Shown: one piece after another, positions 3,154 to 23,452 of the stretch
How positions within the stretch are numbered: position 1 is the first letter of the stretch
Layout of the letters: each line of letters begins with the position of its first letter
NCBI GenBank assembly: GCA_020444765.1
Contig: JAGRHW010000006.1
Location: 1 to 25,762, forward strand
Source: Gammaproteobacteria bacterium
GTDB lineage: Bacteria > Pseudomonadota > Gammaproteobacteria > Granulosicoccales > Granulosicoccaceae
Direction of reading: 5' to 3'
Length of the DNA stretch: 25,762 bases
Program-made: the position numbers and the translations under genes
The notes under the pieces: model-generated
Databases searched by the model: none
What the model saw: the letters and a program-made list of their open reading frames with translations, nothing else
What the model was told of the DNA's origin: nothing

Positions 3154-3606
3154 TTATAGTACGCCCCGTTCTTCCATTTCCTTGCGCAGTTTTTTTATCA
3201 ACCCCTTGGCAGGTTTAAGAGCGCCATCCGTCTCGATAACCTCCATATAAGCATCCAGAATTTCAGCGGCATTCTCGGGTGAACCGATGACAATACCGCC
3301 TCCCATTCTCGCCCCCCAGTGAGGCGTGCATTTGTACATATGTATACCGGACTGCTCAACAACGGTATAGGTGTAGGTCTCACCGATCGGAGACAGCATT
3401 TTCTCGGCATCAGCCGGCATCATACTCTCGATGGATTCCACCATATGAGCGGGCATATTAGTCCAGGTTATTGTGTCGCCAGGTTGGGCAAATACAAATA
3501 ATGGCTCGAACACCAGCCCGACAGCTTTGATGACATGCTCCTCGGCTTTTAGCTGATGCGAGACCAGAAAAAAAACCATGGCGGCCAATGACACTACTTT
3601 TTTCAT
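3154..3606 (-). CDS. Pseudoazurin-like cupredoxin (periplasmic blue copper protein)
   Basis: A protein of 150 residues with a signal peptide (cleavage after LKA). The type 1 copper ligands are all visible: His54 in NMPAHMVES, then Cys93, His96 and Met101 in KCTPHWGARM, the C-x2-H-x4-M spacing of pseudoazurin. A C-terminal extension of about 40 residues is predicted to be helical, again as in pseudoazurin. Such proteins pass single electrons between periplasmic enzymes. The gene sits where xoxG/mxaG, the cytochrome cL gene, often lies between the dehydrogenase and xoxJ/mxaJ, so it may accept electrons from the PQQ enzyme; this is an inference. The start has a strong site (GAGGATGAGGAAG) directly upstream. 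It begins a new transcription unit after the xoxF terminator. Confidence 0.9.
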   Translation of the reverse strand: MKKVVSLAAMVFFLVSHQLKAEEHVIKAVGLVFEPLFVFAQPGDTITWTNMPAHMVESIESMMPADAEKMLSPIGETYTYTVVEQSGIHMYKCTPHWGARMGGGIVIGSPENAAEILDAYMEVIETDGALKPAKGLIKKLRKEMEERGVL

Positions 3607-3947: not shown

Positions 3948-5750
3948 CTAGTTTGGCAAAGCAAAGACTGTCATGGTGCCGCCAAGCTGCGTATAGCTTG
4001 AAAGCTTTCTGTACGCACCTACTGCACCCAGACCATCTGTGTCGTTTTCAAGTCCGGCCGCCATACCGATACCGGCCCAGCCACCTACACCGGAAAGCAC
4101 ACCGACATACTGCTTACCATCGTACTCCCAGGTATTCACATTACCGATAATGCCGGAAGGCGTTTTAAAGCGGTACAGCTCTTTGCCTGTTTCAGCATCC
4201 ACGGCTTTTAAATAACCCTCCAGTGTGCCGTAGAAAACGATGTCACCATCGGTTGAAAGTGCACCACTCCAGACAGAAAAGCGCTCCGGAATCGACCATT
4301 TGATTTTGCCGTTGATGTTGTCCCAGGCAATGAAGTTACCAAGATTATGAGTACCGTCTCCGGTGACCTTGCCTGCCGGGAACATGCTCAATGTTGCACC
4401 GACATAAGGCTGACCCGCAACGTATTCAACTTCAAACGGTTCATAGTTCATGCAAACGTGATTGGTCGGCACGTAAAAGGTCTTGGTTTTGGGCGAGTAG
4501 GACGCCGGTTGCTGATCCTTGCTGCCGAGGGCTGCAGGGCATACGTTTTCTGTGTTGACATCCTCCCCGTTGAGGTGAGTACTGTACTCGGCAACCACCT
4601 GCGGACGACCGGTTTCCATATCAACATGGGTGGCCCAGTTAACGGCCGGGTCGTATTTTTCCGCGAGCAGAAGCTCACCGTTAATCCTGTCGAGCGTATA
4701 GGCAAAGCCGTTGCGATCGAAATGAGTCAGCAGCTTTCTTTCACTACCGTTGAACTCCTGCTCGGTCAGGATCATTTCATTGATACCATCAAAATCCCAC
4801 TCGTCATGAGGCGTCATTTGATAGAGCCAGCGGGCCATGCCGGTATCCGCATCGCGTGCCATGATGGTCATGGTCCACTTGTTATCGCCGGGACGAACAA
4901 CCGGATTCCAGGTGGACGGATTACCGGTACCGTAGTAAATCAGGTTTTCATCCGGATCGAAGGTGTACCAGCCCCAGGTTGTGCCACCACCGATTTTCCA
5001 CTGGTCGCCTTTCCAGGTGCTCAGACTTGAGTCTTTGCCGACCGGCTTGAGCATGCTTGTAGTTTTTTCCGGATCGACCAGCATTTCGTCATCCGGTCCG
5101 GTGCTGAAAGCCTTCCAAGCCAGGCTGCCGTCTTTTATGTGATAGGCCGCGACAAAACCGCGCACGCCATATTCCCCGCCACTGATGCCGGTATAGACCT
5201 TGTCACCATACACGACCGGAGCGTTGGTGTTGGTCTCGCCGACCTTCGGATCACCGTTTTTCACACTCCAGACCACTTCGCCGGTTTTGGCATCCAGCGC
5301 TACCAGCGTTGTATCGGCCTGCTGCAGAAATATTTTTCCATCAGCATACGCCAGACCACGGTTTACCGTATCGCAGCACATCACCGGTATGGTTTCTTCG
5401 CCATTCTGTTTCGGCTCGTACATCCAGTTGAGAAACTGATCTTTCAGATTCATGGAAAAGACTTTGTTGGGAAACGCCGAGTGAACATACAAGGTATCAC
5501 CCACTACCAGCGGACCTCCTTCATGACCGCGCAGAACACCTGTCGAAAAAGTGTAAGCGACTTGCAGATTGCCAACATTATCCTTGTTGATCTGATTCAG
5601 CTGGCTGTATCTTTGCCCGGCATAGTTACCCCCCCAAATTGCCCAGTTTGCAGGATTGCTGATCGCCTCCTTCACACTGTCATTCGCTGTGCCGATTGCA
5701 GGCAGCGCTATCGCTGCAGCAACCGTCAGCACGGTTATATATTTTTTCAT
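3948..5750 (-). CDS. xoxF: Lanthanide-type PQQ methanol dehydrogenase (XoxF-like)
   Basis: This 600-residue periplasmic quinoprotein oxidises methanol and similar primary alcohols. A signal peptide (residues 1-22) precedes an eight-bladed PQQ propeller. Visible features are the vicinal disulfide Cys125-Cys126 ([11 protein letters not shown]), metal ligands Glu193 (SGGEYGVRG) and Asn277 ([11 protein letters not shown]), catalytic Asp319 followed by Asp321 in [12 protein letters not shown], and Arg346 ([12 protein letters not shown]). The second Asp, two residues after the catalytic one, is the mark of lanthanide enzymes; calcium-type MxaF has Ala there. The C-terminal [19 protein letters not shown] resembles MxaF/XoxF rather than ethanol dehydrogenase ExaA. 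The ATG at 5750 has GGGGAAAGAA just upstream and begins a normal signal peptide. An in-frame ATG at 5783 also has a strong site (GGGGAGGAAAG) and would add 11 residues. The gene is monocistronic by its terminator. The XoxF clade cannot be assigned from sequence reading alone. Confidence 0.93.
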
Positions 5751-6221
5751 TTCTTTCCCCACTTCTAATGTTTGTATATGCATAAATACTTTCCTCCCCT
5801 TGGCAGTTTTTTCCCTGAAGAAAAGACCACCGATAGACCAATCAGCAAGTTGCATACCGAAGAAATCGACACGCTGAAAATATTTATTCTGGGAAGATTT
5901 TCAGGCCTTAGCAGGAAGTTTTCCCGACCTTTGAAGGCTTTTGTTTGAAATGAAATATTATAATTGAATCATAGCCTTAGCGGTTTCCATAAAAATCATA
6001 GCCGCTTAATGACCATACTTGATAAATATATAACTTTATTCAAAGATACTTATGGATTGCTCAGTTCCAAAATTTTTTTTGCACAGCCACACGTCCATTA
6101 GTGAAACAAAAAAATTCCGAACTGTTTCGATCTGACACAGCCCACGAACCTCTGAAGGATTACCGCTCTCTATCAACAAATCAGCGGCTTACAATCACGA
6201 CCAGATCGGGAATACAACATC
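5751..6221. other. Divergent promoter region of xoxF and the zinc hydrolase gene
   Basis: These 471 bases are AT-rich, especially 5940-6120, and carry no supported gene. They hold the xoxF leader with two ribosome sites (GGGGAAAGAA next to 5750 and GGGGAGGAAAG near 5789-5800) and a possible sigma-54 element at 5844-5859 on the minus strand. On the plus strand TTGATA near 6019 could be a -35 box but has no good -10 at the right distance. The plus-strand frame at 6101-6328 is a shadow. Confidence 0.55.
5844..5859 (-). promoter_or_regulatory. Possible sigma-54 (-24/-12) promoter for xoxF
   Basis: On the minus strand the sequence CGGTATGCAACTTGCT shows GG, ten bases, then GC, with a full TTGC(T) -12 element. 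The -24 half keeps GG and one A of the TGGCAC consensus. Transcription would start near 5833, giving a leader of about 50-80 bases before the two candidate starts. The window also encodes a sigma-54 activator. The match is partial and could be chance. Confidence 0.3.
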
Positions 6222-7169
6222 ATGATATACAAGCCTGGCTCTCTTTTAAAAACACTGATATTGATTTGTTTGATTTTCCTGCCAGTCACTTTTGTTACCG
6301 CCGAAGAGAACAAATGCACTTCAAATGAAAATTATACACAAGTCGCTGATGGGATTTTTGTCCGGCAAGGCCGGGACGGCATCACGTTTGAGGACAGCAA
6401 TGTCGCCAACATCGGGTTCATCCTTGGTCAGAATTGTGTGGCCGTGATCGATACGGGAGGAAGCAAGGCGGAAGGCGAAGCACTGAAGTGTGCAATCAGG
6501 CAAATCACCGACTTGCCTGTTTGCTACGTTATCAATACCCATTTTCACCCCGACCATATCATGGGCAACATTGCCTTCAGGGATTCAGGAGCGACATTCA
6601 TCGGCCACCAAAATCTGCCCCAGGCTATCGGCCTGGCTGCCGCCACCTATAGCGGACGAGCCACGGTATACGAAGCTCGGAAGGTCAGTCCGGACGAATT
6701 GAAGATACCGTTTGTTACCGTAACCACGACCCTGTCCATCGATATCGGTAAAAGGCTACTTGAAATCACCGCCCATGATATTGCACATACCAACAATGAT
6801 CTCAGCCTTTACGATCCTGCGAGTCAAACCTTATGGTTGTCTGACCTGTTGTTCACCAGCCATACTCCGGTTCTGGCGGGCAGTCTTAACGGCTGGCTGG
6901 AAACCGTCGAGACCCTGCGTCTGAAGCATGCTGAGCGAGTCATACCAGGCCACGGCCCGGTAAGCGCAGTCTGGCCTGAGGCCGCAAATACACAGATAGA
7001 TTATCTGACCACCTTGAAAAAGCAGGTAAAAACAGCCATAGACGAAGGTGTCTCACTACTGGCCGCTCAGGAACGGCTAATGAACGACAACCCCTGGCAC
7101 TGGACACTTTACGAGGAACTTCGAAAACGGAATATTATTAATGCCTATGCGGAACTTGAGTGGGAATAA
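6222..7169 (+). CDS. Quinoprotein relay system zinc metallohydrolase (SoxH-like metallo-beta-lactamase fold)
   Basis: The protein has 315 residues: an N-terminal signal segment (residues 8-27) and a metallo-beta-lactamase fold with HFHPDH at 107-112, His189 (IAHTNND), Asp208 (LSDLLF) and His244 (IPGHGPV), i.e. a complete two-zinc site. It resembles the SoxH-related hydrolases that occur beside PQQ dehydrogenases and SoxYZ-like carriers. Related enzymes (SoxH, glyoxalase II) cleave thioester or persulfide-type bonds, so a role in releasing a group from the SoxYZ carrier encoded next is a reasonable inference; no substrate is known. The ATG at 6222 was chosen because it begins a clean signal peptide; the ribosome site (GGGA) is weak and distant. 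It is divergent from xoxF and followed by the carrier gene after 65 bases without a visible terminator. Confidence 0.85.
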   Translation: MIYKPGSLLKTLILICLIFLPVTFVTAEENKCTSNENYTQVADGIFVRQGRDGITFEDSNVANIGFILGQNCVAVIDTGGSKAEGEALKCAIRQITDLPVCYVINTHFHPDHIMGNIAFRDSGATFIGHQNLPQAIGLAAATYSGRATVYEARKVSPDELKIPFVTVTTTLSIDIGKRLLEITAHDIAHTNNDLSLYDPASQTLWLSDLLFTSHTPVLAGSLNGWLETVETLRLKHAERVIPGHGPVSAVWPEAANTQIDYLTTLKKQVKTAIDEGVSLLAAQERLMNDNPWHWTLYEELRKRNIINAYAELEWE

Positions 7170-7234
7170 CAGCACTATGATAAGGCCTGATTAAAATAAC
7201 TCATCGAACAGATCGCGCAAGCGGGAGGAACTGC

Positions 7235-8083
7235 ATGTATCACCCAACATTGAAATCACCCGGAATACTGATCCTGGCCAACTGTCTTCTGCTTCTGCTG
7301 GCACAAAGCGTGTCGGCGGCCGAACAATCGGAAGTGGGTATCTGGGAATCCTCGTTAAGAAACACCTATTTCGGTACCAGCGAAATCGAGGAGAATAATG
7401 ACATCATTCAAATTGAGGCGCCGAAGCGGGCGGAAGATCCCGCGCTCCTGCCACTCAAGATCAAAACAGGGATTCCTCAATCCGAGCAACATTATATCAA
7501 GAGCGTATCGCTGATTATCGACAGAAACCCGGATCCGCTTGCCGGCGTTTTTCATTTCACGCCGGACAATGGTAAAGCCGATCTGGAACTTCGGGTAAGA
7601 CTGGACCAATATTCCCATGTTCGCGCCATTGCGGAAATGAACGACGGAAAACTGTACATGACCAGCCGTTATGTAAAAGGCAGTGGGGGCTGTTCAGCAC
7701 CGGCGGCTGGCGATCTTGCCGCGGCCATGGCCAGACTTGGAAAAATCAAACTGCAAACCGGGGCACCTTCTGCCGACACAGATTCGCCCCTGGTATCCGC
7801 CATGCTGCGCATCAGTCATCCGAACATCACCGGCATGCAGAAAAACCAGATGACGCAGCTTTTTTATCCATCTCACTACGTCCAGGAGGTCAAGGTCAAG
7901 CTTGACGACAAGCCCATCTTTTCCGCTGAACTTGGCATTTCTATCAGTGAAAATCCGTCCTTTCTGTTCTACCTGAGCCCTGAACAGAGCGGCCGCCTGA
8001 CCGCTGAAATCAGAGACAGCGAGGATCTGACGTTCGTACATACCGAAGAGGTCAGGATCAAATCCGTAAAAGGTGCGTCCTGA
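7235..8083 (+). CDS. Quinoprotein-associated SoxYZ-like fusion carrier, copy 1
   Basis: This secreted protein of 282 residues (signal peptide to about residue 29) fuses a SoxY-like domain (about 40-160) to a SoxZ-like domain (about 185-280). The carrier cysteine is Cys153 in KGSGGCSAP, matching the GGC swinging arm of SoxY, but here the arm is internal instead of at the C-terminus. The SoxZ half shows ISHPNITGMQ and SISENPSFLF. In the Sox pathway SoxYZ carries the substrate covalently on this Cys while periplasmic enzymes act on it. This fused form is known from PQQ dehydrogenase clusters, where the carried group is unknown. A strong ribosome site (GGGAGGAA) precedes the ATG. It probably shares a transcript with the zinc hydrolase and ends before a hairpin at 8119-8154. 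Confidence 0.88.
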   Translation: MYHPTLKSPGILILANCLLLLLAQSVSAAEQSEVGIWESSLRNTYFGTSEIEENNDIIQIEAPKRAEDPALLPLKIKTGIPQSEQHYIKSVSLIIDRNPDPLAGVFHFTPDNGKADLELRVRLDQYSHVRAIAEMNDGKLYMTSRYVKGSGGCSAPAAGDLAAAMARLGKIKLQTGAPSADTDSPLVSAMLRISHPNITGMQKNQMTQLFYPSHYVQEVKVKLDDKPIFSAELGISISENPSFLFYLSPEQSGRLTAEIRDSEDLTFVHTEEVRIKSVKGAS

Positions 8084-8118
8084 CTGCAACAGCCGCATCA
8101 AGGCGGTCCGAGCCGTGT

Positions 8119-8154
8119 GACCGTTACTTCCCCGGCCTGAAGGAAGTGACGGTC
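8119..8154. terminator. Hairpin between convergent genes, possible bidirectional terminator
   Basis: A 13-bp stem (GACCGTTACTTCC with GGAAGTGACGGTC, one T-G pair) surrounds a 10-base loop. It lies between the convergent SoxYZ copy 1 and DUF302 genes. Only three T residues follow on the plus strand and there is no T run on the other strand, so it is not a textbook intrinsic terminator. Confidence 0.5.
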
Positions 8155-8201
8155 GCTTTCCGCCGTCCGGTTTCGTCTCTCCTTAAACTGCTTTCCCGGA
8201 A

Positions 8202-8693
8202 CTAATCCTGGACAGCATAATTGACGATATCTCTCATCATCTTGTTGACTCTCCGGGCCACCTCCAGCATTGCCGGGTCCGCCTCGGTCAGCAAGCGCGC
8301 ATCGACAACCACGGCATTGTCTTCAAGTCTTTCTCTGACGGTTATACGACAAGGCATATGCAAAAGATAGGATGAATCTATTGCCAGTATTTCCTTGGCC
8401 GCCTGCGTATTACAAAAATGCAAGACCGTCGCCTCCTTGAATTTTTCACCATCCATCTCGGCAATCGACGCGCCCACCCGGTTGCGGCCGGTCAGCCTGT
8501 AATTAAACTGACTGATTGCAAACTCCACATCCGCCACCACATCGGTAAAATTTTTCTTGACGGTTTCACGGGTATAACGCCCGACCTGCTTTTCCGAAAG
8601 TCCGTCATCGGCAAGTACGGCCTGGCCGGAGACGAGCAATAACAACAGCGCAAGACCCGCCAGCAAACGGCCATAGCCCGAGCATTTATTCAT
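8202..8693 (-). CDS. DUF302 domain secreted protein
   Basis: The protein has 163 residues, with a signal peptide (MNKCSGYGRLLAGLALLLLL, cleavage near VLA-DDG) and a DUF302-like alpha/beta domain (about 40-150). Typical parts are the long N-terminal helix with VKKNFTDVVADVEFAISQ, the strand VLHFCNTQAAKEIL and LLHMPCRITVRE. The function of DUF302 is unknown; proposals include binding of small ligands or metal. The ATG at 8693 overlaps the stop of the upstream SoxYZ copy by 8 bases, which suggests translational coupling. The longer frame to 8807 would lie inside that gene and lacks a signal peptide at its start. It is the last gene of the three-gene minus-strand unit. Confidence 0.8.
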   Translation of the reverse strand: MNKCSGYGRLLAGLALLLLLVSGQAVLADDGLSEKQVGRYTRETVKKNFTDVVADVEFAISQFNYRLTGRNRVGASIAEMDGEKFKEATVLHFCNTQAAKEILAIDSSYLLHMPCRITVRERLEDNAVVVDARLLTEADPAMLEVARRVNKMMRDIVNYAVQD

Positions 8694-9567
8694 CGGCTTT
8701 GATGGTCTGGTACAGATAAAACTCTTTGTCATCGGTATCCCGCATGCGCGCCACCAGCTCGCCGGATTCATCCGGTGCAAACTTAAAGCGGAAGCTGGGA
8801 TTTTCACTGATGGTAAATGAAGTCTCGGCCTTTAACAGCCGCTCATCGTTAAAGCTCACTTCGACTTCCTTGACATAACTTTGCGGAATAAGCATGGTGG
8901 ACAACTGATCTCTTTGCATGCCGGTATTGTTCGGATGTGAAATCATGAGCTGGACCGCTTTCGACTGGTTTTGCGAACTTTCGAGCGCCTGGGAAAATTT
9001 AAACCGCATATTCCCGAGGGAAGCTTTCGCCTGTTCCTGATTCGTACCTGGCGGCGCCGAACAGCCCGCGCCTCTTGACTTGACCCACTGCTTGTCCATA
9101 TACAGCGTTCCGTCCGTCATTTCGGCAATCGCCCGGATATAGGTGTAGCCGTTGACACGCACCCGGGTTGCAATATATTCCGGATTTCTGGTCGGCGAGA
9201 CGGTGAACTTCGCCGCCATCGGCGATGGATTGATATCGACGGTCAGGTAGATGTTTTGAATCGCGGCGCTAAAGCCTTCCGGCAGCTCGGTGTGAATCTG
9301 CACCGGCACCAGCGCATCGTTTTCAGCGCGGGCTGGGGCTTCTATCCTTATCACACGCTGTTTGTCCGACTCGATGATTTCTCTTTCGCCAAAAAATCCC
9401 AGCGCCAGCCCCTGCCAAAGCCTGTCTCCTTCAGGCTGCGTAAATGCGCCGCCCCAATCGGCATAGTCTGCTGAGTTCTCCTGAGCCCCCTGTACCGTCG
9501 GCAAAGCCGAACAGGCAAGCAGGAAAAACAGCGCCGTTTTCAATCTCCGGTGATTAACCTGACCCAT
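8686..9567 (-). CDS. Quinoprotein-associated SoxYZ-like fusion carrier, copy 2
   Basis: This is a second fused SoxY-SoxZ carrier, 293 residues with a signal peptide to about residue 28. The carrier cysteine is Cys169 in SRGAGCSAP. It is clearly a paralogue of copy 1: both have IAEM.DG.LYM, ISHPN.TGMQ and ISENPSF at the same places. They differ over most other positions, so the duplication is old or one copy came from elsewhere. Copy 2 has an insertion near the mature N-terminus (about residues 30-50, WGGAFTQPEG). It follows the small Cys protein by 8 bases and overlaps the DUF302 gene, so these three genes form one operon. An AGTAGG ribosome site lies close before the ATG. Confidence 0.87.
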   Translation of the reverse strand: MGQVNHRRLKTALFFLLACSALPTVQGAQENSADYADWGGAFTQPEGDRLWQGLALGFFGEREIIESDKQRVIRIEAPARAENDALVPVQIHTELPEGFSAAIQNIYLTVDINPSPMAAKFTVSPTRNPEYIATRVRVNGYTYIRAIAEMTDGTLYMDKQWVKSRGAGCSAPPGTNQEQAKASLGNMRFKFSQALESSQNQSKAVQLMISHPNNTGMQRDQLSTMLIPQSYVKEVEVSFNDERLLKAETSFTISENPSFRFKFAPDESGELVARMRDTDDKEFYLYQTIKADE

Positions 9568-9575
9568 GTATAGAC

Positions 9576-9950
9576 CTACTGATTATCTTTTTGTTGTTGT
9601 CCTGAAGCCTGGGTCCGCACCGTACAGGACTTTAAGGCCTCGGTTTTCATCTTGTCGATAGAACGAAGGAACTCACGGGCATTCGGCACATCTCTGAATG
9701 CACCACCCTTTTCCCCGGGCGTATTGATCATTGCCCTAAGCGTTTCCGCCTCGACAAACTGGTCATAAGTCAGTTTTTCAGACAGCTTGTCGACCGAGCA
9801 GGAACAGGCGTACAGATTCTGAATGGTCTGCCCGCCCTGCTCCTTCATACACAGCAGCGCATACTCCACGCGCGCCTGCGTGGGAAAATCATTCGCAAAG
9901 ACGGTCCCTGACAACAGGGTAAACGTCAGGATCAGGATAGATTTTTTCAT
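9576..9950 (-). CDS. Small secreted protein with four cysteines, function unknown
   Basis: The protein has 124 residues with a clear signal peptide (cleavage after VFA). The mature part has Cys34, Cys49, Cys51 and Cys109; the CSCS motif follows a helix-like stretch with QNLYA. The rest looks helical and charged, and the last 15 residues are Gln-rich. I do not recognise a named family. The C-x-C pair and distant single Cys residues suggest disulfides or a metal or thiol function in the periplasm. It is the first gene of the unit that contains SoxYZ copy 2 and DUF302, with 8 bases to the next gene, so a role with the thiol carrier is plausible but unproven. Confidence 0.7.
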   Translation of the reverse strand: MKKSILILTFTLLSGTVFANDFPTQARVEYALLCMKEQGGQTIQNLYACSCSVDKLSEKLTYDQFVEAETLRAMINTPGEKGGAFRDVPNAREFLRSIDKMKTEALKSCTVRTQASGQQQKDNQ

Positions 9951-10121
9951 GAGAATATCACCAGCTTCACCGGCTTTAATTTATACCACCAAAAACGAGG
10001 CGACCTCGATCAGAAAATTCGGATCAGGAAAAATCTCCGAGAATGCGGGAATTTTTCCCAGCCGGCAGGACTCGGACAGGCAATTATACTGTGATGAAAA
10101 ACCAGCCAGGTTTATGCAGGC

Positions 10122-11405
10122 ATGCGTTTGTTAAAACGACTCAATCCAAAAAAAACCGGCAAGAGCGAATCACCGCCCAGCCTGCCAAGGCGTGATTTTT
10201 TCCGCAACAGCGCCTCCGTGTCCCTGGCCTCTATCGCTGCCTCGAACGCACTGGCCGCGCAAACAACCGAACCGCCGGCGTGGATGTCTGTGCCCGGCAA
10301 ACCGTTTTCAAATTACGGCCAGCCTTCCCCGCACGAGAACACCATTCGCTGGATTGCCGACACGCCCGGCTCGGCCGGCAACGGCGTGTCCTGGACGCCT
10401 TTGCATCAACTGGAAGGCACCATAACACCCAACGGCCTGCATTTTGAGAGACACCACAATGGCGTACCGGACATAGACCCTGCCGGACATACGCTGTACA
10501 TTCACGGCCTGGTCGGCAAACCGCTTGCCTTCACCCTGGATCGTTTGCATCGCTATCCCCTGCAATCCAGAGTCTGCTTTATCGAATGTGGGGGTAACAG
10601 CAACGCCGGCTGGCGGGAGAATCCGCTGCAAACACCGGCCGGACTGATACACGGCATGCTCTCGTGCAGCGAATGGACCGGCATACCGGCCCACTACCTG
10701 CTCGAAGAGTGCGGCCTTGGCAAAAGCGCAAAATGGGTGATTGCGGAAGGCGCCGATGCCTTCGGCATGAAAGTCAGTATTCCTCTGGAAAAGCTGCTGG
10801 ATGATGCAATACTGGCACTCTATCAGAATGGCGAAGCCATACGCCCGGAAAACGGCTACCCGCTCCGCCTGATCCTGCCCGGCTGGGAAGGCGTCACCCA
10901 GGTAAAGTGGCTGAGGAGACTGCATGTCGCCGACCGGCCCGTCATGTCCCGAAACGAGACGGCCAAATACACCGAGCTGCAAAAAGACGGAACGGCGCGC
11001 CAGTTTACCTTTCCGATGCAGACCAAGTCGCTGATTACCTCTCCCTCTTACGGCATGCATCTGGATGGACCGGGCTTGTATCAGATCAGCGGTCTGGCCT
11101 GGAGCGGTAACGGCAGGATCGTCAGGGTCGAGATCTCTTCAGACGGCGGGAACAGCTGGTCTGAGGCCGGACTCGAAGCCCCTGTTCTGCCAAAGGCCCT
11201 GACCCGCTTCCGCGCTCCCTGGCGATGGGATGGTAAATCCGCCGTGCTGAAAAGCCGGGCCACCGATGAAACAGGACAGCTGCAACCTGAGCGGGATCAA
11301 CTTATCGCCGACCGGGGCCGGCAAGGTTACTACCATTACAACGCGATCGTGCACTGGAAGGTTCATCCGGAAGGGAATATTGAGCACAGCTATGACAATG
11401 CCTGA
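10122..11405 (+). CDS. soxC: SoxC-type sulfane/sulfite dehydrogenase, molybdopterin subunit
   Basis: The protein has 427 residues. A Tat signal is visible (RRDFFRNSAS at 23-32), as needed for a cofactor-loaded molybdenum enzyme. The sulfite-oxidase-fold domain holds the molybdenum ligand Cys156 in CFIECGGNSNAGW, then SCSEWTGIPA and GYPLRLILPGWEG. The C-terminal dimerisation domain shows SGLAWSGNGRIVRVE and SSDGGNSW. This pattern is that of SoxC, which with the cytochrome SoxD oxidises the sulfur bound on SoxYZ. The matching SoxD-like gene is not next door but at 14434-15006, after the formaldehyde operon. SoxB and SoxXA are absent from the window, so the substrate may differ from thiosulfate-derived sulfur. 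The ATG at 10122 has only a weak site. The gene is divergent from the small Cys protein. Confidence 0.9.
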   Translation: MRLLKRLNPKKTGKSESPPSLPRRDFFRNSASVSLASIAASNALAAQTTEPPAWMSVPGKPFSNYGQPSPHENTIRWIADTPGSAGNGVSWTPLHQLEGTITPNGLHFERHHNGVPDIDPAGHTLYIHGLVGKPLAFTLDRLHRYPLQSRVCFIECGGNSNAGWRENPLQTPAGLIHGMLSCSEWTGIPAHYLLEECGLGKSAKWVIAEGADAFGMKVSIPLEKLLDDAILALYQNGEAIRPENGYPLRLILPGWEGVTQVKWLRRLHVADRPVMSRNETAKYTELQKDGTARQFTFPMQTKSLITSPSYGMHLDGPGLYQISGLAWSGNGRIVRVEISSDGGNSWSEAGLEAPVLPKALTRFRAPWRWDGKSAVLKSRATDETGQLQPERDQLIADRGRQGYYHYNAIVHWKVHPEGNIEHSYDNA

Positions 11406-11460
11406 CCCGCAAACCAGCGCAGGCCGGCAGGCGACTCAAGCGGTCATTCAGCGGGCAGGC

Positions 11461-12093
11461 TTATTTGCTTTTTACCAGCGACAGAGGCTCCACCGCCTGA
11501 GCGCATCCGGTACCAAGCCAGACCATTTCCAGAACCGCCTCCGAGAAGGCGGAAAGCGGTTGATCTATCGCGCCGTCAAGCCGCAACTGAATCAGGCGAA
11601 AGGCGCCGCCAAAGATCACCGAGGTAGCCACCCAGGGGTCGGCTTTTTTAATAAGACCCTGCTTCATGCCGTCCTGCACGATATTGCGCATTTTTATAAA
11701 CGGCGCGGCATCGCAGATCAGTGGCTCTTGCGGCAGGAACTCCACATGCTTGGCGTTGAACACGAACGCGATGATATCCCGATGGGTTTCAGTGTATTGA
11801 AACAATTGTTCGATAATACTCTCGCACTGGCTCACTGGCGAGGGTATTTCAGCGATGGTGTCATCGACCATTTCTTCTATCTGCTTGAGGATATGCTGAT
11901 AAAGCGCTCTGGCAATCCCCTCTTTGCCACCAAAATGGTTATAGATAGAACCGATGCTGACATTGGCCCGTTTCTGGATTTCGTGCACCGAAACATTGTG
12001 GTAGCCGTGCAGCACAAACAACTCCAATGCCGCAGTCATGATTCTGCAGTCTATCGGTTCCGGAACGGGAGGATCGGTGCGTAAATACGGCAT
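11461..12093 (-). CDS. TetR/AcrR family transcriptional regulator
   Basis: The protein has 210 residues with an N-terminal TetR helix-turn-helix (about residues 17-62: ALELFVLHGYHNVSVHEI, then RANVSIGSIYNHFGGKEGI) and a helical ligand-binding domain. It is divergently placed 380 bases from the formaldehyde oxidation genes and converges on soxC. The position suggests that it represses or senses something for the frmA-fghA-soxD operon, and possibly itself; the ligand is unknown. The ATG at 12093 was kept because the helix-turn-helix begins soon after it. Two short dyads in its upstream region could be operators. Confidence 0.88.
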   Translation of the reverse strand: MPYLRTDPPVPEPIDCRIMTAALELFVLHGYHNVSVHEIQKRANVSIGSIYNHFGGKEGIARALYQHILKQIEEMVDDTIAEIPSPVSQCESIIEQLFQYTETHRDIIAFVFNAKHVEFLPQEPLICDAAPFIKMRNIVQDGMKQGLIKKADPWVATSVIFGGAFRLIQLRLDGAIDQPLSAFSEAVLEMVWLGTGCAQAVEPLSLVKSK

Positions 12094-12108
12094 GCAGCAA
12101 TAGTACAG

Positions 12109-12120
12109 AAACAGATGTTT
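12109..12120. promoter_or_regulatory. Dyad, possible TetR operator
   Basis: AAACAGATGTTT has 5-bp inverted arms around a 2-base centre, 16 bases upstream of the tetR start. A second dyad follows at 12139-12148. The spacing suits autoregulation, but such short dyads arise by chance. Confidence 0.25.
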
Positions 12121-12138
12121 TGTGGCAATTGACAGAAG

Positions 12139-12148
12139 TGAACATTCA
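12139..12148. promoter_or_regulatory. Dyad, possible TetR operator (second)
   Basis: TGAACATTCA has 4-bp inverted arms TGAA/TTCA. TGAA...TTCA-type half-sites are common among TetR operators. It sits 30 bases from the first dyad, between tetR and frmA. Confidence 0.25.
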
Positions 12149-12437
12149 TTCTATTCTAGATCCAGTTGTTTTTTCTGCCTGCCGGAACAGTGCATCCGAA
12201 GCAGACAGAAAATAAAAAAATACAATACCGCAAGCCGAAACCGGCTGCTGCTGTGTAGCATTTTCATTCAGGCCGCTTGCCTTTCGCGGCAGGCCGATAG
12301 AGATGTGTTGACAACAAATATCAGGGCTGCCGCCTGGCCCCAACACTGGCAGCGGAACGATGGATTCCGCGGCGCATTCGGTTCCCGTACGCAATCCTCT
12401 GCGGTTGAGCACAAAGCGCCCCGGTCACCCCTGATAA

Positions 12438-13583
<1,146 letters not shown>

Positions 13584-13592
13584 GAGGGAACC

Positions 13593-14432
13593 ATGCAGGA
13601 ATCTGAAAGCTTCAAGGAGTTCGGGGGTTGGCTTAAACGCTATACCCACGACTCCGAAACATGTCATTGTCAAATGACCTTCTCCGTGTATCTGCCGCCG
13701 CTGGCGGAAACGCAGAAAGTCCCTGCTGTTTACTGGCTGTCCGGGCTGACCTGCACCGACGATAATTTTCGTGACAAGGCAGGGGCGCAACGCTACGCCT
13801 CGGAACTCGGCATCGCCCTGATCATACCCGACACCAGCCCGAGAGGGGACGATGTCCCCGACGAGCCGGACCGGTACGATCTCGGCAAAGGCGCCGGTTT
13901 TTATGTTAATGCAACCCAGGCGCCGTGGAACAAGCATTATCATATGTACGACTATATTACGCAGGAGCTTCCGGCACTGATCGAGAAAAACTTCCCGATC
14001 ATTCCCGGCAGGCGGTCGATTTCCGGGCATTCCATGGGCGGGCATGGCGCCCTGATCTGCGCCTTGAAAAACCCCGGCATGTACAAGTCGGTATCGGCTT
14101 TTGCACCAATCTGCAACCCGGTCAATTGCGGATGGGGACATGGCTGCTTCGGCGCTTATCTCGGCGATCAGCAATCCGACTGGGCGGCCTATGACGCCAC
14201 CTGCCTGATCGAAAACGGCGCCGAGCCCATCCCGCTCCTGATCGATCATGGCACCAGCGATGAATTCCTCGCCGATCAGCTTTATCCGCAAAACCTGCAA
14301 AAGGCCTGCGAGGAAAGCAACTTTCCTGTAACGCTGCGCATGCAGGAACAATACGATCACAGCTATTACTTCATTTCGACATTTATCGGTGAACATCTGG
14401 CCTATCACGCCAAGGCACTGATGGCTGACTGA
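13593..14432 (+). CDS. fghA: S-formylglutathione hydrolase
   Basis: This 279-residue cytoplasmic esterase hydrolyses S-formylglutathione to formate and glutathione. It has the esterase D alpha/beta-hydrolase fold with Ser147 (SGHSMGGHGAL), Asp223 (DHGTSDEF) and His256 (QYDHSYYF). The WLSGLTCTDDNF segment near residue 50 and PWNKHYHMYDY are characteristic of the family. A GAGGGAA ribosome site precedes the ATG. The stop codon is separated by a single base from the start of the SoxD-like cytochrome gene, so that gene must be cotranscribed. It is named frmB in Escherichia coli. Confidence 0.97.
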   Translation: MQESESFKEFGGWLKRYTHDSETCHCQMTFSVYLPPLAETQKVPAVYWLSGLTCTDDNFRDKAGAQRYASELGIALIIPDTSPRGDDVPDEPDRYDLGKGAGFYVNATQAPWNKHYHMYDYITQELPALIEKNFPIIPGRRSISGHSMGGHGALICALKNPGMYKSVSAFAPICNPVNCGWGHGCFGAYLGDQQSDWAAYDATCLIENGAEPIPLLIDHGTSDEFLADQLYPQNLQKACEESNFPVTLRMQEQYDHSYYFISTFIGEHLAYHAKALMAD

Positions 14433-14433
14433 T

Positions 14434-15006
14434 ATGCACCGCAAACCGGCCCCGGGCAGACGAGTTCTGAGTTACCTGGGGCCGGCTTTGCTCACACTGC
14501 TCTGCCTGGCAAACGGTAAAACCACCGAAGCAGGTCAAGACTCTCCCGGTCTCGGCTTACCCGTCGATCAATCCATTCTCGAACGACTCGATCAACGCGA
14601 TATCTTCCCGGACGGAAAAAACCTGCCGCCCGGCAACGGAACCGTCAGCGCCGGGCGGACACTATTCCAGCAGCAATGCGCGCATTGCCATGGTCGCGAA
14701 GGACTTGGAGGAAACGCCGAGGCACTGGCCGGCGGCGAAGGACAACTGACGGACTCCTATCCCGATAAGGTCATCGGGCTGTACTGGCCTTATGCATCGA
14801 CTTTATTCGACCTGATCAGACGTGCGATGCCGCTCGATCGGCCCGCCAGCCTGCGAGATGATGAGGTTTATTCACTGACCGCCTATCTTCTGTATATCAA
14901 CGGTATCCTTGAGTCCGACTCCGGAACAGTTGACAAACAGGCCCTGCAGAATATCCAGATGCCCAATCGCAACGGTTTTATCCGGATCTATCCGTCCTCT
15001 GAATAA
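14434..15006 (+). CDS. soxD: SoxD-type monohaem cytochrome c
   Basis: The protein has 190 residues with an N-terminal signal segment (about 11-33). The single haem site is CAHCH at 82-86. Around it are segments I recognise from the N-terminal cytochrome domain of SoxD: PDGKNLPPGNGTV, LAGGEGQL, YWPYASTLFDLIRRAMP and DDEVYSLTAYLLYIN; Met132 in RAMP is a likely axial ligand. Known SoxD proteins of chemotrophs are often dihaem and about twice this length, so this is a short form with one haem. SoxD takes electrons from SoxC, so its partner is probably the soxC gene at 10122-11405. It starts one base after the fghA stop (TGATATG), with no good ribosome site of its own, which implies translational coupling to formaldehyde oxidation. 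Confidence 0.85.
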   Translation: MHRKPAPGRRVLSYLGPALLTLLCLANGKTTEAGQDSPGLGLPVDQSILERLDQRDIFPDGKNLPPGNGTVSAGRTLFQQQCAHCHGREGLGGNAEALAGGEGQLTDSYPDKVIGLYWPYASTLFDLIRRAMPLDRPASLRDDEVYSLTAYLLYINGILESDSGTVDKQALQNIQMPNRNGFIRIYPSSE

Positions 15007-15010
15007 GGCT

Positions 15011-15514
15011 CTAGACTTTTTCCGGTGGCTTGGAAATAAAACAATAGACCGTCGAATCGTCGGAATTGTTTACGCTCTCGGTCAGCAGGGAATAAGGTAT
15101 CGCACCCAACTTCCTGCTCTTGTCCTCATCGGCAACGCTGTAAACCGCCAGAAAGGAATTATAGGTCTTGTCACATCCCTGATAATGCCTCGCCGCCACC
15201 CAGGGTTGACCGACCGCAGTCTGGTCGCTGAAGGATGAGGAAAACACCGCATATTCAGCCTTGGCTTTTTTATCCGGCGACACCATGCTCGCACCAATCA
15301 GGTTATGAACGCTCACTTTTTGGATCAACCACGACTTGTCGCCAAGACGGATCTCGCCACCTACGACCTCCTGCCTGCTTTCGGCATTTAGTTCAAAATA
15401 TCCGCCGGCGGCAATCTCTGCCACCAGTAATTGTTGAGCCATTACATTGCCGGATATCAGTAGACAAATGGCGCTGACAGCCCATGCCGCCGTTGAGGAA
15501 ACTATTTTCTGCAC
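15011..15514 (-). CDS. Secreted protein of unknown function
   Basis: The protein has 167 residues, a signal peptide (cleavage after VMA), then a beta-rich domain with QQLLVAEIAAGGYFELNAE, IRLGDKSWLIQKVSVHN and two cysteines (in YQGCDKTY and TVYCFIS) that could form a disulfide. I do not recognise the family. The start is GTG at 15514 with AGAGG about 10 bases upstream. It converges on soxD with only 4 bases between the stops. A terminator-like hairpin lies in its leader. Confidence 0.65.
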   Translation of the reverse strand: MQKIVSSTAAWAVSAICLLISGNVMAQQLLVAEIAAGGYFELNAESRQEVVGGEIRLGDKSWLIQKVSVHNLIGASMVSPDKKAKAEYAVFSSSFSDQTAVGQPWVAARHYQGCDKTYNSFLAVYSVADEDKSRKLGAIPYSLLTESVNNSDDSTVYCFISKPPEKV

Positions 15515-17830: not shown

Positions 17831-18871
17831 TTACCGCAGCTTATCATCGGCCCGCTTTAAAACAGCGGGCCAGGACTTGTCGGCAACACGCCTCAAGCTC
17901 TGCCACAGATAGAACAGCAAAAAACACAACAAGGCCAAAGCGGAAAAATATGGCGCAAGCACGGTGCTTTTGGTCTTTTTACTGATAAACTCCCTGGATT
18001 TCAGCAAAGCCTTCAAATCCGTTCCGGGCGACGCATTAAAATAATGCAAATTCAGTGTGCGGCTTAACTCCTGCAGATGCGATTCTTTCAGGGAGGACAA
18101 GTGCTCGGTGCCCTGCTCGATTCTCTTTTGCAGATTTTCATCATCAACCCCTACCGGCGCTTTCCCGTCATTTGTGCTTCGGCCCAAGGAATAGTTATCG
18201 ACCTGCAAGACCTGGCCTGCCTTCCAGTAACCGATAAAGTTGCCTTTATAGGAATACAACGGTATAGGTACAGGCAGCGATCCTCCGATACCGATAATAG
18301 CGCCGGACACCGCTTTGTTCTGACCCGAATATTTCGGACGATAGGTTTCGTGCAGAGGCGGCGCTTCATGTCCGTCCGTCAGAAAAACCACATTCACGGG
18401 CTCGTCCAGCAAATTCTCCGATACCTCCAACGCCGAAAAAATCCCCTTGCTTACCTCACTGCGTGCCTCCCAGGCCATCCGCCAATCAATTGCATCAATT
18501 GCACTGGAAATTTCCGTGTAGTGCTCACAGACCTCAACGGCCTTAAAAAGTGCAAAGCTTCTGTGGCCGGTAAAAATACCCAGAGCGATCTCAGACCCGC
18601 AAGGCAAATCGGCAAGGGCCTCGATAACCAGCTTTTTTGAATACTGCAGGCGCGATACCTGATCATCGCCCAGAGCGATATCCTTTACATTCATGCTTTG
18701 GGTGATGTCGAAGACAATAAAATGATGGTAAACCTTGCCTGGAATATTCACTCTGAAATCGCATGCCGCCAGTATCACCAGAAACAGACCGGCCAGCGAT
18801 AACACCAGCCGCGGGGTGGCAAAACGGCGAATACCGGATAGTCCTGTCAGAGCGCGATTGAAGCTGTCCAT
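17831..18871 (-). CDS. mxaL: MxaL-like von Willebrand factor A domain protein
   Basis: The protein has 346 residues: an N-terminal membrane anchor (about 21-37), a VWA domain with MIDAS motif DITQSMN at 55-61 and downstream FLTDGHEAP, and a C-terminal membrane helix (about 305-325). The VWA domain faces the periplasm in the predicted topology. MxaL belongs to the MxaRSACKL group needed in Methylobacterium for calcium insertion into methanol dehydrogenase. It is the last gene of this operon. The ATG at 18871 has no clear ribosome site; a GTG lies directly before it and a short upstream frame ends just before that. A perfect 8-bp inverted repeat at 17849-17871 lies in its final codons. Confidence 0.82.
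   Translation of the reverse strand: MDSFNRALTGLSGIRRFATPRLVLSLAGLFLVILAACDFRVNIPGKVYHHFIVFDITQSMNVKDIALGDDQVSRLQYSKKLVIEALADLPCGSEIALGIFTGHRSFALFKAVEVCEHYTEISSAIDAIDWRMAWEARSEVSKGIFSALEVSENLLDEPVNVVFLTDGHEAPPLHETYRPKYSGQNKAVSGAIIGIGGSLPVPIPLYSYKGNFIGYWKAGQVLQVDNYSLGRSTNDGKAPVGVDDENLQKRIEQGTEHLSSLKESHLQELSRTLNLHYFNASPGTDLKALLKSREFISKKTKSTVLAPYFSALALLCFLLFYLWQSLRRVADKSWPAVLKRADDKLR
17849..17871. repeat. Inverted repeat at the 3' end of mxaL
   Basis: GGCCCGCT and AGCGGGCC pair perfectly over 8 bp around a 7-base loop. It lies in the last codons of mxaL and just past the end of the convergent activator gene. No T run follows on either strand, so it may help end or protect transcripts but is not a standard terminator. 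Confidence 0.45.
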
Positions 18872-18874
18872 CAC

Positions 18875-18910
18875 TCAATACCCAACACTGGTGTTATCGT
18901 GGTCGCTCAT
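18875..18910 (-). CDS. 11-codon leader frame before mxaL
   Basis: An ATG at 18910 with a strong ribosome site (GGAGAGAGGAA) opens a frame for MSDHDNTSVGY that stops at TGA, directly followed by GTG-ATG of mxaL in the same frame. It may be a translated leader that feeds ribosomes to mxaL, or the true N-terminus of MxaL interrupted by a stop. Confidence 0.35.
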   Translation of the reverse strand: MSDHDNTSVGY

Positions 18911-18931
18911 TTCCTCTCTCCGCTTGCCACT

Positions 18932-19480
18932 TCACGGCAAACGTTCATAGGCGGTTGTTTCAACTGGCGCACTGGGACTTCTCTCCGGCATGATGTCATC
19001 CTCCTGGGCCTCACGGAATTCGGCGTCCGGCAGAACCTGCAGCACTCTGGCCAGATTGTAGCGGGATGGCCAGTGCGAATTGTCAGCACGCAATATCATC
19101 CGATAGTTTTCCTTGGCCAGCTCGATGTAAGGGATCCGTGCGTCTGATCTGGCTGACTCTTCGAGCGCCACCGCCTTACGCAGATAGATCTCGGCCAGAT
19201 TGAAACGTGCATTTTGCACAAGGCTTTTGTCGTCGAAGGTCAGGACGGTATTGTAGTATTTCTCCGCTGTGTCGAAGTCACCGTCGTGATAAGCCTTCCA
19301 GGCCACCAGTGATTGCGCAAAAGCCGATTTATCAACCAGGGCTGCATCAAAACCACTGCTATCCAGCACTGCCCGGTTCATTGCACTTTCCAGCTGGTAC
19401 GAGCGATATTCAACGCCGATCAGGACCAGGCTTATCAGCATGATGACAACAGCACCCGTTTTCGGTAAAGACCGCCTCAT
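18932..19480 (-). CDS. mxaK: MxaK-like membrane-anchored protein
   Basis: The protein has 182 residues: one N-terminal membrane helix (about 8-24), then a helical region with a TPR-like stretch (WKAYHDGDFDTAEKYYNTVL and NARFNLAEIYLRKAV). The C-terminal 25 residues are acidic and Pro-rich. Its place between mxaC and mxaL and its size match MxaK, one of the proteins needed for calcium loading of methanol dehydrogenase; its precise job is unknown. The ATG at 19480 overlaps the mxaC stop as ATGA, which decides the start; a longer frame begins with GTG at 19504. The naming rests mainly on gene order. Confidence 0.75.
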   Translation of the reverse strand: MRRSLPKTGAVVIMLISLVLIGVEYRSYQLESAMNRAVLDSSGFDAALVDKSAFAQSLVAWKAYHDGDFDTAEKYYNTVLTFDDKSLVQNARFNLAEIYLRKAVALEESARSDARIPYIELAKENYRMILRADNSHWPSRYNLARVLQVLPDAEFREAQEDDIMPERSPSAPVETTAYERLP

Positions 19481-21434: not shown

Positions 21435-21436
21435 CG

Positions 21437-22300: not shown

Positions 22301-22310
22301 GATTTTGTCT

Positions 22311-23345: not shown

Positions 23346-23452
23346 ATCAACGTTCACAATCGTTTTTTCCCCTGTATTTCCCGTAAAAATCCGACTCAGT
23401 AAGACAAATATTTTATTAAAATGCAAGCTGCTGGATTAAAGTAATTATTAAA

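What the first reader, a model, noticed from the sequence alone, without database searches (positions are those of the whole stretch)
6222..15006. Quinoprotein-linked Sox-like module with two thiol carriers, a SoxH-type hydrolase and a split SoxC/SoxD pair
The window encodes two fused SoxYZ carriers, a SoxH-like zinc hydrolase, a DUF302 protein, a small Cys-rich secreted protein, a Tat-exported SoxC and a one-haem SoxD. SoxB and SoxXA, which load and cleave sulfur in the normal pathway, are not here. SoxYZ-like carriers and SoxH-like hydrolases near PQQ enzymes are known from annotation, but their chemistry is not settled. The addition of SoxC, and of SoxD cotranscribed with formaldehyde oxidation genes, suggests a full periplasmic route: a group bound on the carrier Cys, oxidised by SoxCD, and released by the hydrolase. 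One idea is that formaldehyde from the PQQ enzyme binds the carrier thiol, parallel to the glutathione route in the cytoplasm; methanethiol or other sulfur compounds are the alternative.
Basis: partly seen in the sequence, partly recalled or inferred. Interest (0 to 1): 0.8.

Follow-up and report, generated by a model that had tools for sequence, protein, structure and literature searches.

The report
Sox oxidase with methanol-enzyme thiol carriers
Beside a lanthanide-type methanol dehydrogenase, this bacterium carries two fused sulfur-carrier proteins, a zinc hydrolase and a molybdenum oxidase with a haem partner, and related genomes suggest that they form one little-noticed module, probably oxidising sulfur attached to the carrier.

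Summary
The genes are as described: two fused SoxYZ carriers, a SoxH-type hydrolase, DUF302, a small Cys protein, SoxC and a one-haem SoxD-like cytochrome. The wider link is the new part. The window's SoxC lies in one SoxC clade (100/99), apart from SoxC of soxB operons. In 185 genomes sampled across the class, all 11 with window-type SoxC also have fused SoxYZ, against 2 of 14 with other SoxC; SoxB occurs in 1 of 11 against 12 of 14. A fused carrier lies beside soxC in 13 of the 80 nearest loci. The Cys protein belongs to a four-Cys family without Pfam or NCBIfam model, found only in genomes with PQQ alcohol dehydrogenase (19 of 19). The frmA-fghA-soxD linkage was not seen in any of 80 relatives, so it is weak support for formaldehyde. 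Best reading: a Sox branch without SoxAXB that oxidises sulfur held on the fused carrier and protects or serves the PQQ enzyme. Substrate and function are inferred; 8 of 50 chosen relatives have SoxA and SoxB with only this SoxC; soxAXB in the window's own genome is untested because it is not held.

The parts
3948..5855 (-). XoxF-type PQQ methanol dehydrogenase; DEWDFDG (extra Asp) and adjacent Cys-Cys
   Evidence: PF01011; sequence; that these motifs mark lanthanide XoxF is recalled
6222..7169 (+). SoxH-type zinc metallohydrolase, 65 bases before the first carrier; THFHPDH motif
   Evidence: TIGR04559 335 bits over cut-off 280; sequence
7235..8083 (+). fused SoxYZ carrier 1, arm VKGSGGCSAP
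   Evidence: TIGR04557 260 bits; Cys invariant in 88 of 88 distinct carriers
8202..8693 (-). DUF302 protein with signal-like N-terminus; likely start at 8693, overlapping the stop of carrier 2 (start inferred)
   Evidence: PF03625; homologues within 2 kb of the carrier in L092, L099, L105, L176, L178, L179
8686..9567 (-). fused SoxYZ carrier 2, arm VKSRGAGCSAP
   Evidence: TIGR04557 247 bits; model matches SoxY and SoxZ structures 4uwq, 2ox5
9576..9950 (-). small secreted four-Cys protein, 8 bases before carrier 2 on the same strand
   Evidence: 24-sequence alignment with C34, C49, C51, C109 invariant; 19 of 185 genomes, all 19 with PQQ alcohol dehydrogenase
10122..11405 (+). SoxC, molybdopterin subunit, Tat signal; divergent from the four-Cys/carrier 2 genes (171 bases between)
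   Evidence: TIGR04555 568 bits; 2xts_A; C156 invariant in 68 of 68 SoxC
11461..12093 (-). TetR-family regulator, between soxC and frmA
   Evidence: PF00440
12474..13583 (+). frmA, S-(hydroxymethyl)glutathione dehydrogenase; lies between soxC and soxD only here
   Evidence: TIGR02818; not found near soxCD in 80 relatives
13593..14432 (+). fghA, S-formylglutathione hydrolase
   Evidence: TIGR02821
14434..15006 (+). one-haem SoxD-type cytochrome c, directly after fghA
   Evidence: 2xts_B E 1.3e-31; one CXXCH

Best explanation
A Sox branch that works without SoxAXB and is tied to PQQ alcohol dehydrogenases. Shown by sequence and comparison: the fused SoxYZ carrier has one invariant Cys on the linker between its SoxY and SoxZ halves, and a distinct SoxC clade with a one-haem SoxD goes with it. 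Inferred: reduced sulfur in the periplasm (sulfide, persulfide, thiosulfate, sulfite, or sulfur stuck to PQQ or to the enzyme's Cys pair) becomes attached to that Cys; SoxC oxidises the bound sulfur and SoxD passes the electrons on; the SoxH-type zinc hydrolase frees the oxidised group, in place of SoxB; a thioredoxin-like protein or the four-Cys protein resets the thiol. The purpose is most likely to keep sulfur nucleophiles off the PQQ enzyme, with electrons as a by-product.
For: In 185 genomes, fused SoxYZ in 11 of 11 with window-type SoxC against 2 of 14 with other SoxC (Fisher 2e-5); among the 32 genomes with PQQ alcohol dehydrogenase over cut-off, SoxC in 11 of 20 with fused SoxYZ and 0 of 12 without (0.0016). 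Fused SoxYZ beside soxC in 13 of the 80 nearest loci, in 12 directly upstream on the same strand by 101-594 bases, scattered over the carrier tree (15 of 88 rows, 11 changes, at least 7 forced by supported branches). In one carrier clade of 14 rows, 8 sit by soxC and 3 by a xoxF-like gene. Of 50 relatives, 6 give no match for a separate SoxY/SoxZ pair; 5 of these have fused SoxYZ, and in all 5 it lies beside soxC. SoxC and cytochrome are nearest 2xts. A thioredoxin-fold gene (AhpC-TSA hit; one of the three just under cut-off) flanks three such operons. Methylophaga thiooxydans, with soxCDHYZ, two soxYZ fusions and no SoxAB, is reported to make more of some Sox proteins on dimethylsulfide (PMC6548844 section 27). 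SoxH is said to stand in for SoxB in Sulfurimonas CVO (PMC11237559 passage). Some nearest relatives of carrier 2 bear the names Thiosocius teredinicola, Thiolinea and Granulosicoccaceae.
Against: No experiment. Of 22 genomes with fused SoxYZ, 9 have no SoxC over cut-off and 11 no window-type SoxC, so the carrier has a job without it. In 67 of the 80 loci no full carrier was found beside soxC (some loci are short, L059 has a partial one). In 8 of 50 relatives with SoxA and SoxB the only SoxC is window-type, and PMC12810054 (passage) reports soxCD together with one SoxB cluster in Methylobacter. Up to 44 of 50 also have a separate SoxY/SoxZ pair. One-haem SoxD is not special to this clade: 16 of 17 other SoxC outside soxB operons have it too. 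PMC11237559 argues that fused SoxYZ-S2/S4 are unlikely to act directly in sulfur metabolism and that SoxH replacing SoxB is improbable in hosts that have soxB. Genomes are related, so Fisher p-values overstate independence. No loader in place of SoxAX is identified.
Confidence: 0.45

Rival explanations
1. Maturation or redox factor: the fused carrier, hydrolase and four-Cys protein make or mend the adjacent-Cys disulfide or the cofactor of the PQQ enzyme, and SoxCD only drains electrons from the carrier thiol.
For: All 22 genomes with fused SoxYZ have a PQQ alcohol dehydrogenase hit (20 over cut-off, G058 and G110 below or in pieces); the four-Cys protein occurs only in such genomes, in 15 of 19 within 6 kb of a PQQ enzyme or carrier gene; disulfide formation or cofactor stabilisation is proposed for Pseudomonas putida (PMC12997753 section 15).
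Against: SoxC and SoxD are nearest the 2xts pair; P. putida transposon mutants showed minimal effects, though without rare earths (same section).
Confidence: 0.22
2. SoxCD is a free-standing sulfite (or other) dehydrogenase that happens to share genomes with the carrier.
For: In 67 of 80 nearest loci no full fused carrier was found beside soxCD; NCBIfam names the family sulfite dehydrogenase.
Against: Repeated YZ-soxC-soxD operons; 351 bits to 2xts_A against 102 to SorA, and SorA's PGYYGTYW stretch reads PGWEGVTQ here and PGWEGNMW in 2xts.
Confidence: 0.15
3. SoxCD serves an ordinary, separate SoxYZ (with or without SoxAXB) elsewhere in the genome.
For: Matches for a separate SoxY/SoxZ in up to 44 of 50 chosen relatives; SoxB in 11 and SoxA in 13 of 50; in 8 of these the only SoxC is window-type; soxCD goes with one SoxB cluster in Methylobacter (PMC12810054 passage).
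Against: Five genomes without a separate pair have fused YZ beside soxC; G033, G047 and G050 hold both SoxC kinds; SoxB in 1 of 11 class-sample genomes with window-type SoxC.
Confidence: 0.1
4. The carrier thiol binds formaldehyde made by XoxF, SoxCD oxidises the adduct and the hydrolase releases formate.
For: frmA, fghA and soxD are nearly contiguous here; the hydrolase has weak likeness to hydroxyacylglutathione hydrolase (TIGR03413 21.5 bits, cut-off 200.8).
Against: 0 of 80 relatives have frmA or fghA near soxCD; the 22 solved relatives of this SoxC are named as sulfite or nitrate enzymes.
Confidence: 0.06

Closest known systems
Sox thiosulfate-oxidising system (SoxXA, SoxYZ, SoxB, SoxCD) of Paracoccus pantotrophus
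   Same: Carrier with arm Cys; SoxC and cytochrome nearest the 2xts chains
   Different: No SoxA or SoxB among the scanned window ORFs; fused carrier; SoxC in a clade apart from soxB-operon SoxC, whose SoxD has two haems
Quinoprotein-associated fused SoxYZ (TIGR04557) and SoxH-related hydrolase (TIGR04559); SoxYZ-S2 and SoxYZ-S4 of PMC11237559; PP_2677/PP_2678 of Pseudomonas putida
   Same: Same families beside a PQQ alcohol dehydrogenase (PMC11237559 passages; PMC12997753 section 15)
   Different: The passages read name no SoxCD partner or four-Cys protein for them
Truncated Sox sets of Methylococcus and Methylophaga (SoxCD with SoxYZ, no SoxAB)
   Same: Same gene absences; M. thiooxydans also has two soxYZ fusions (PMC8527097 passage; PMC6548844)
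   Different: There the role is called unclear or put down to inorganic sulfur; soxCD is not tied to the fused carrier as one module in the passages read
Sulfite dehydrogenase SorAB
   Same: Molybdenum subunit and one-haem cytochrome (SorB recalled)
   Different: SorA scores 102 bits against 351 for 2xts_A

Membership tests
Quinoprotein-associated SoxYZ-like carrier (TIGR04557) | score over curated cut-off, SoxY and SoxZ fused, arm Cys kept | tested here: met
   260 and 247 bits over 140; SoxY and SoxZ domains; Cys in both
SoxH-related PQQ hydrolase 2 (TIGR04559) | score over curated cut-off | tested here: met
   335 bits over 280
SoxC (TIGR04555) | score over curated cut-off and invariant molybdenum-binding Cys | tested here: met
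   568 bits over 420; C156 in 68 of 68; its role as metal ligand is recalled
SoxD | cytochrome homologous to 2xts chain B, gene beside soxC | tested here: met
   E 1.3e-31; beside soxC in 77 of 80 relatives though not in the window
SoxD | two haem domains as in soxB operons | tested here: not met
   one CXXCH here and in 43 of 43 window-type loci with a cytochrome, also in 16 of 17 other loci outside soxB operons; two in 7 of 7 soxB-operon SoxD
Canonical Sox system | SoxAX and SoxB present | tested here: inconclusive
   no SoxA or SoxB among scanned window ORFs; own genome not held; SoxB over cut-off in 11 and SoxA in 13 of 50 chosen relatives; SoxX not searched
Canonical Sox system | thiosulfate or sulfur oxidation | not testable with these tools
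   needs biochemistry
SorAB sulfite dehydrogenase | SorA over NCBIfam cut-off | tested here: not met
   132 bits against cut-off 600

The most novel reading that the evidence does not exclude
A self-contained periplasmic route in methylotrophs in which fused SoxYZ acts as the acceptor thiol: the group bound to its Cys (sulfur from adducts on the PQQ enzyme, or even a one-carbon unit) is oxidised by a dedicated SoxCD and freed by the zinc hydrolase, so that lanthanide methanol oxidation depends on a previously unrecognised carrier cycle.
Probability: 0.12. Interest if true: 0.88.

Novelty: new variant of a known kind. Interest (0 to 1): 0.6.

Why it matters
Fused SoxYZ and SoxH-type proteins beside PQQ enzymes, and SoxCD without SoxAXB in methanotrophs, are two open puzzles in the papers read in part. 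Tying them into one module, with a four-Cys protein family that two model libraries do not hold, gives a testable set of partners in cultured strains such as Methylococcus capsulatus and Methylophaga thiooxydans. If right, it links lanthanide methanol oxidation with periplasmic sulfur chemistry.

Tried and rejected
Own-genome search for soxAXB: not possible, no genome held. Nearest kin of carrier 2 (proteins P0002-P0005, 66-75% identical) could not be placed on contigs: 63 genomes of the order of G015 and a class draw of 369 genomes gave at most 47% identity, so the frmA-fghA-soxD order in the closest relatives is untested. Fold search of the four-Cys protein: best PDB match E 1.5. A link of soxCD with formaldehyde genes: not seen in 80 loci. 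Residues that set window-type SoxC apart from the rest: five positions passed the filter; I draw nothing from them. Simple ORF calling in G+C-rich loci was poor, so contexts rest on tblastn. One-haem SoxD as a mark of this clade: rejected, since 16 of 17 other SoxC outside soxB operons have it. SoxX, and the co-occurrence of methanethiol oxidase, were not searched.
Full report
What is there. The window is a 25,762-base contig whose genome is not held. From left to right: an ORF with a SPASM domain at the contig edge (the end of a pqqE-like gene, inferred), a beta-propeller protein, an SRPBCC-type protein, a binding-protein-like gene (weak PF00497 hit; XoxJ position, name recalled), a cupredoxin and a PQQ methanol dehydrogenase with DEWDFDG and a Cys-Cys pair; then the module of the finding; then a sigma-54 regulator and vWA, DUF58 and MoxR genes like the mxa accessory genes (likeness recalled). 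By spacing, soxH-YZ1 (+), four-Cys protein-YZ2-DUF302 (-) and frmA-fghA-cytochrome (+) look like operons; soxC (+) diverges from the second over 171 bases.

Identity. SoxC is over the curated cut-off of TIGR04555 and far below that of SorA. Its closest solved protein is 2xts chain A (351 bits; SorA 102) and the cytochrome's closest is chain B of the same entry (113 bits); that 2xts is the SoxCD of Paracoccus pantotrophus is recalled. Where SorA reads PGYYGTYW the window reads PGWEGVTQ and 2xts PGWEGNMW. Both carriers pass TIGR04557; the model of carrier 2 matches SoxY and SoxZ structures, and its Cys169 lies in a less certain stretch between the two halves. In 88 distinct fused carriers the arm Cys is invariant and is the only Cys column above 30%.

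The split soxC/soxD. The 80 nearest SoxC loci in genome contigs (the best 80 of 369) come largely from Methylococcaceae, Methylophaga, Methyloversatilis, Hyphomicrobium and unnamed Gammaproteobacteria. In 77 the cytochrome follows soxC on the same strand within 0.9 kb; the other three loci end within 300 bases after soxC. No frmA or fghA hit appears in any of the 80, though many loci are short. So the split here looks local, and the cotranscription with formaldehyde genes is not a conserved clue. The closest kin of this contig could not be inspected.

A separate SoxC clade. A tree of 68 distinct SoxC (33 of the 80 loci, the window, and soxC from the class sample, from the 50 genomes and from three plasmids) puts the 44 window-type rows on one side of a 100/99 branch; the seven SoxC from soxB operons and the 17 others lie on the other side. 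The label window-type was set beforehand by score above 440 bits; two outside rows score 437 and 439. All 43 window-type loci with a cytochrome have a one-haem form and all seven soxB-operon loci a two-haem form, but 16 of the 17 other SoxC loci are one-haem as well, so one haem marks absence from a soxB operon rather than this clade. G033, G047 and G050 hold both a soxB-operon SoxC and a window-type SoxC.

Co-occurrence. In 185 genomes drawn evenly from the class of G007: fused SoxYZ over cut-off and without internal stop in 22 (six further genomes over cut-off showed only a read through a stop between soxY and soxZ and were left out), SoxC over cut-off in 25, SoxB in 74, PQQ alcohol dehydrogenase in 32. 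Window-type SoxC occurs in 11 (10 of them placed by the tree, G008 by 64% identity), all with fused SoxYZ; of 14 with other SoxC only, 2 have it (Fisher 2e-5). SoxB is in 1 of those 11 and in 12 of those 14; G108, with SoxB in pieces below cut-off, is counted as without. Among the 32 PQQ genomes SoxC is in 11 of 20 with fused SoxYZ and 0 of 12 without (0.0016). If G058 and G110, both with fused SoxYZ and SoxC and with PQQ hits below cut-off or in pieces, are added, it is 13 of 22 against 0 of 12 (6e-4). Kinship among the genomes makes these p-values optimistic.

Gene order. In 13 of the 80 loci a fused carrier lies beside soxC, in 12 directly upstream on the same strand at 101-594 bases; a partial one in L059 is not counted. 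On the carrier tree (88 rows) the soxC neighbourhood needs 11 changes, at least 7 of them forced by supported branches; the two window rows are among its 15. It turns up in Hyphomicrobium, in a Burkholderiaceae genome and a near relative, in a Methylococcaceae locus (other orientation) and in a clade of unnamed Gammaproteobacteria, in which sister carriers sit beside a xoxF-like gene instead. Transfer of a ready-made operon between some of these is not excluded: Hyphomicrobium and Burkholderiaceae SoxC fall in one group (93/94).

Sox parts elsewhere in relatives. In 50 of the 80 genomes (chosen, not random): fused SoxYZ over cut-off in 48, TIGR04559 in 46, SoxB in 11, SoxA in 13. In 37 neither SoxA nor SoxB passes. 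Six have no match beyond the fused ones, or none at all (G009, G016, G021, G022, G040, G043); five of them (not G022) carry fused SoxYZ, and in all five it lies beside soxC. In the other 44 I read the further, lower matches as a separate SoxY/SoxZ pair. Against exclusivity, eight genomes (G004, G006, G010, G014, G017, G028, G029, G031) have SoxA and SoxB, and their only SoxC over cut-off is window-type (by tree, or by 62-65% identity), so there SoxCD may serve both. Many of these genomes are incomplete.

The four-Cys protein. Homologues found in the fetched loci gave a 24-row alignment with four invariant Cys (C34, C49, C51, C109) and invariant T24, D54 and G82. The window member has no Pfam match at 0.1 and no member has an NCBIfam match at 0.01; the model (pLDDT 80) is helical, best PDB match E 1.5. 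In the 185 genomes it occurs in 19, all among the 32 with PQQ alcohol dehydrogenase, and in 17 of the 22 with fused SoxYZ; in 15 it lies within 6 kb of a PQQ enzyme hit or a carrier gene. It looks like an undescribed accessory of these enzymes.

Literature. PMC12997753, section 15 read, offers disulfide formation, cofactor stabilisation or protection of PQQ from sulfur nucleophiles. PMC11237559, passages, describes SoxYZ-S2/S4 beside PQQ enzymes and SoxH, cites SoxH standing in for SoxB in Sulfurimonas CVO but calls that improbable where soxB is present, and leans to carbon metabolism or protection of methanol dehydrogenase. PMC8527097, passage, and PMC6548844, passages and section 27, note SoxCD without SoxAB in Methylococcus and Methylophaga; the latter cites XoxF oxidising thiosulfate in Advenella and finds some Sox proteins raised on dimethylsulfide. 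PMC12810054, passage, finds soxCD together with one SoxB cluster in Methylobacter. PMC6553558, PMC11582611, PMC13333085, PMC12911358 and PMC12172469 were seen in passages: soxYZ with SoxCD in Methylotetracoccus; a SoxYZ fusion and SoxH assigned to PQQ alcohol catabolism in Hyphomicrobium denitrificans; no SoxCD in USC-gamma; sox genes in Methylotuvimicrobium; a soxYZ fusion among highly transcribed genes of a symbiont. None of the passages read joins fused SoxYZ to SoxCD as one module, nor do the titles and starts of abstracts listed by searches (25 of 288 and 25 of 207 papers listed in 43 and 44). Most subscription papers are not in the library.

Mechanism and weight. Shown: the partnership in genomes, the separate SoxC clade, the conserved carrier Cys, the lack of SoxB in most genomes with this SoxC (10 of 11 in the class sample; SoxA was searched only in the 50 chosen relatives). 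Inferred from the families: SoxCD oxidises sulfur held on the carrier Cys, and the zinc hydrolase releases it. Unknown: what loads the carrier. I rate the sulfur reading at 0.45, a maturation role at 0.22, an independent dehydrogenase at 0.15, service to ordinary SoxYZ at 0.10 and a one-carbon adduct at 0.06.

Noticed in passing
window 3154-3606: A plastocyanin/azurin-type cupredoxin (PF00127) lies between xoxF and the XoxJ-like gene, where the cytochrome XoxG is usual (recalled); homologues in the same order in L142 and L144.
   Followed up: partly
window 9576-9950 and 19 genomes: Four-Cys periplasmic protein family without Pfam or NCBIfam model, confined to genomes with PQQ alcohol dehydrogenase in the class sample; in G078 and G220 it lies within 0.5 kb of that gene although no fused SoxYZ was found.
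   Followed up: yes
window 17831-23426 and 24529-25761: vWA, DUF58 and MoxR genes like the mxa accessory cluster, and a sensor kinase with a LapD/MoxY domain cut by the contig end.
   Followed up: no
L225 (NZ_CP044425.1, plasmid pPAN2): Paracoccus pantotrophus carries a plasmid soxC plus one-haem cytochrome, outside both the window clade and the soxB-operon rows.
   Followed up: no
L186, L215, L216 (G050): A Methyloversatilis genome holds three SoxC over cut-off of three different tree groups; L216 was dropped from the tree as identical to L078.
   Followed up: partly
L181 (G007 C2:408000-422000): Methylococcus capsulatus has separate soxZ and soxY in opposite orientation about 0.55 kb apart, with no SoxA or SoxB hit over cut-off in the genome.
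   Followed up: no
window 15011-15514: Secreted-looking 167-residue protein without a Pfam match at 0.001, convergent with the SoxD-type gene.
   Followed up: no
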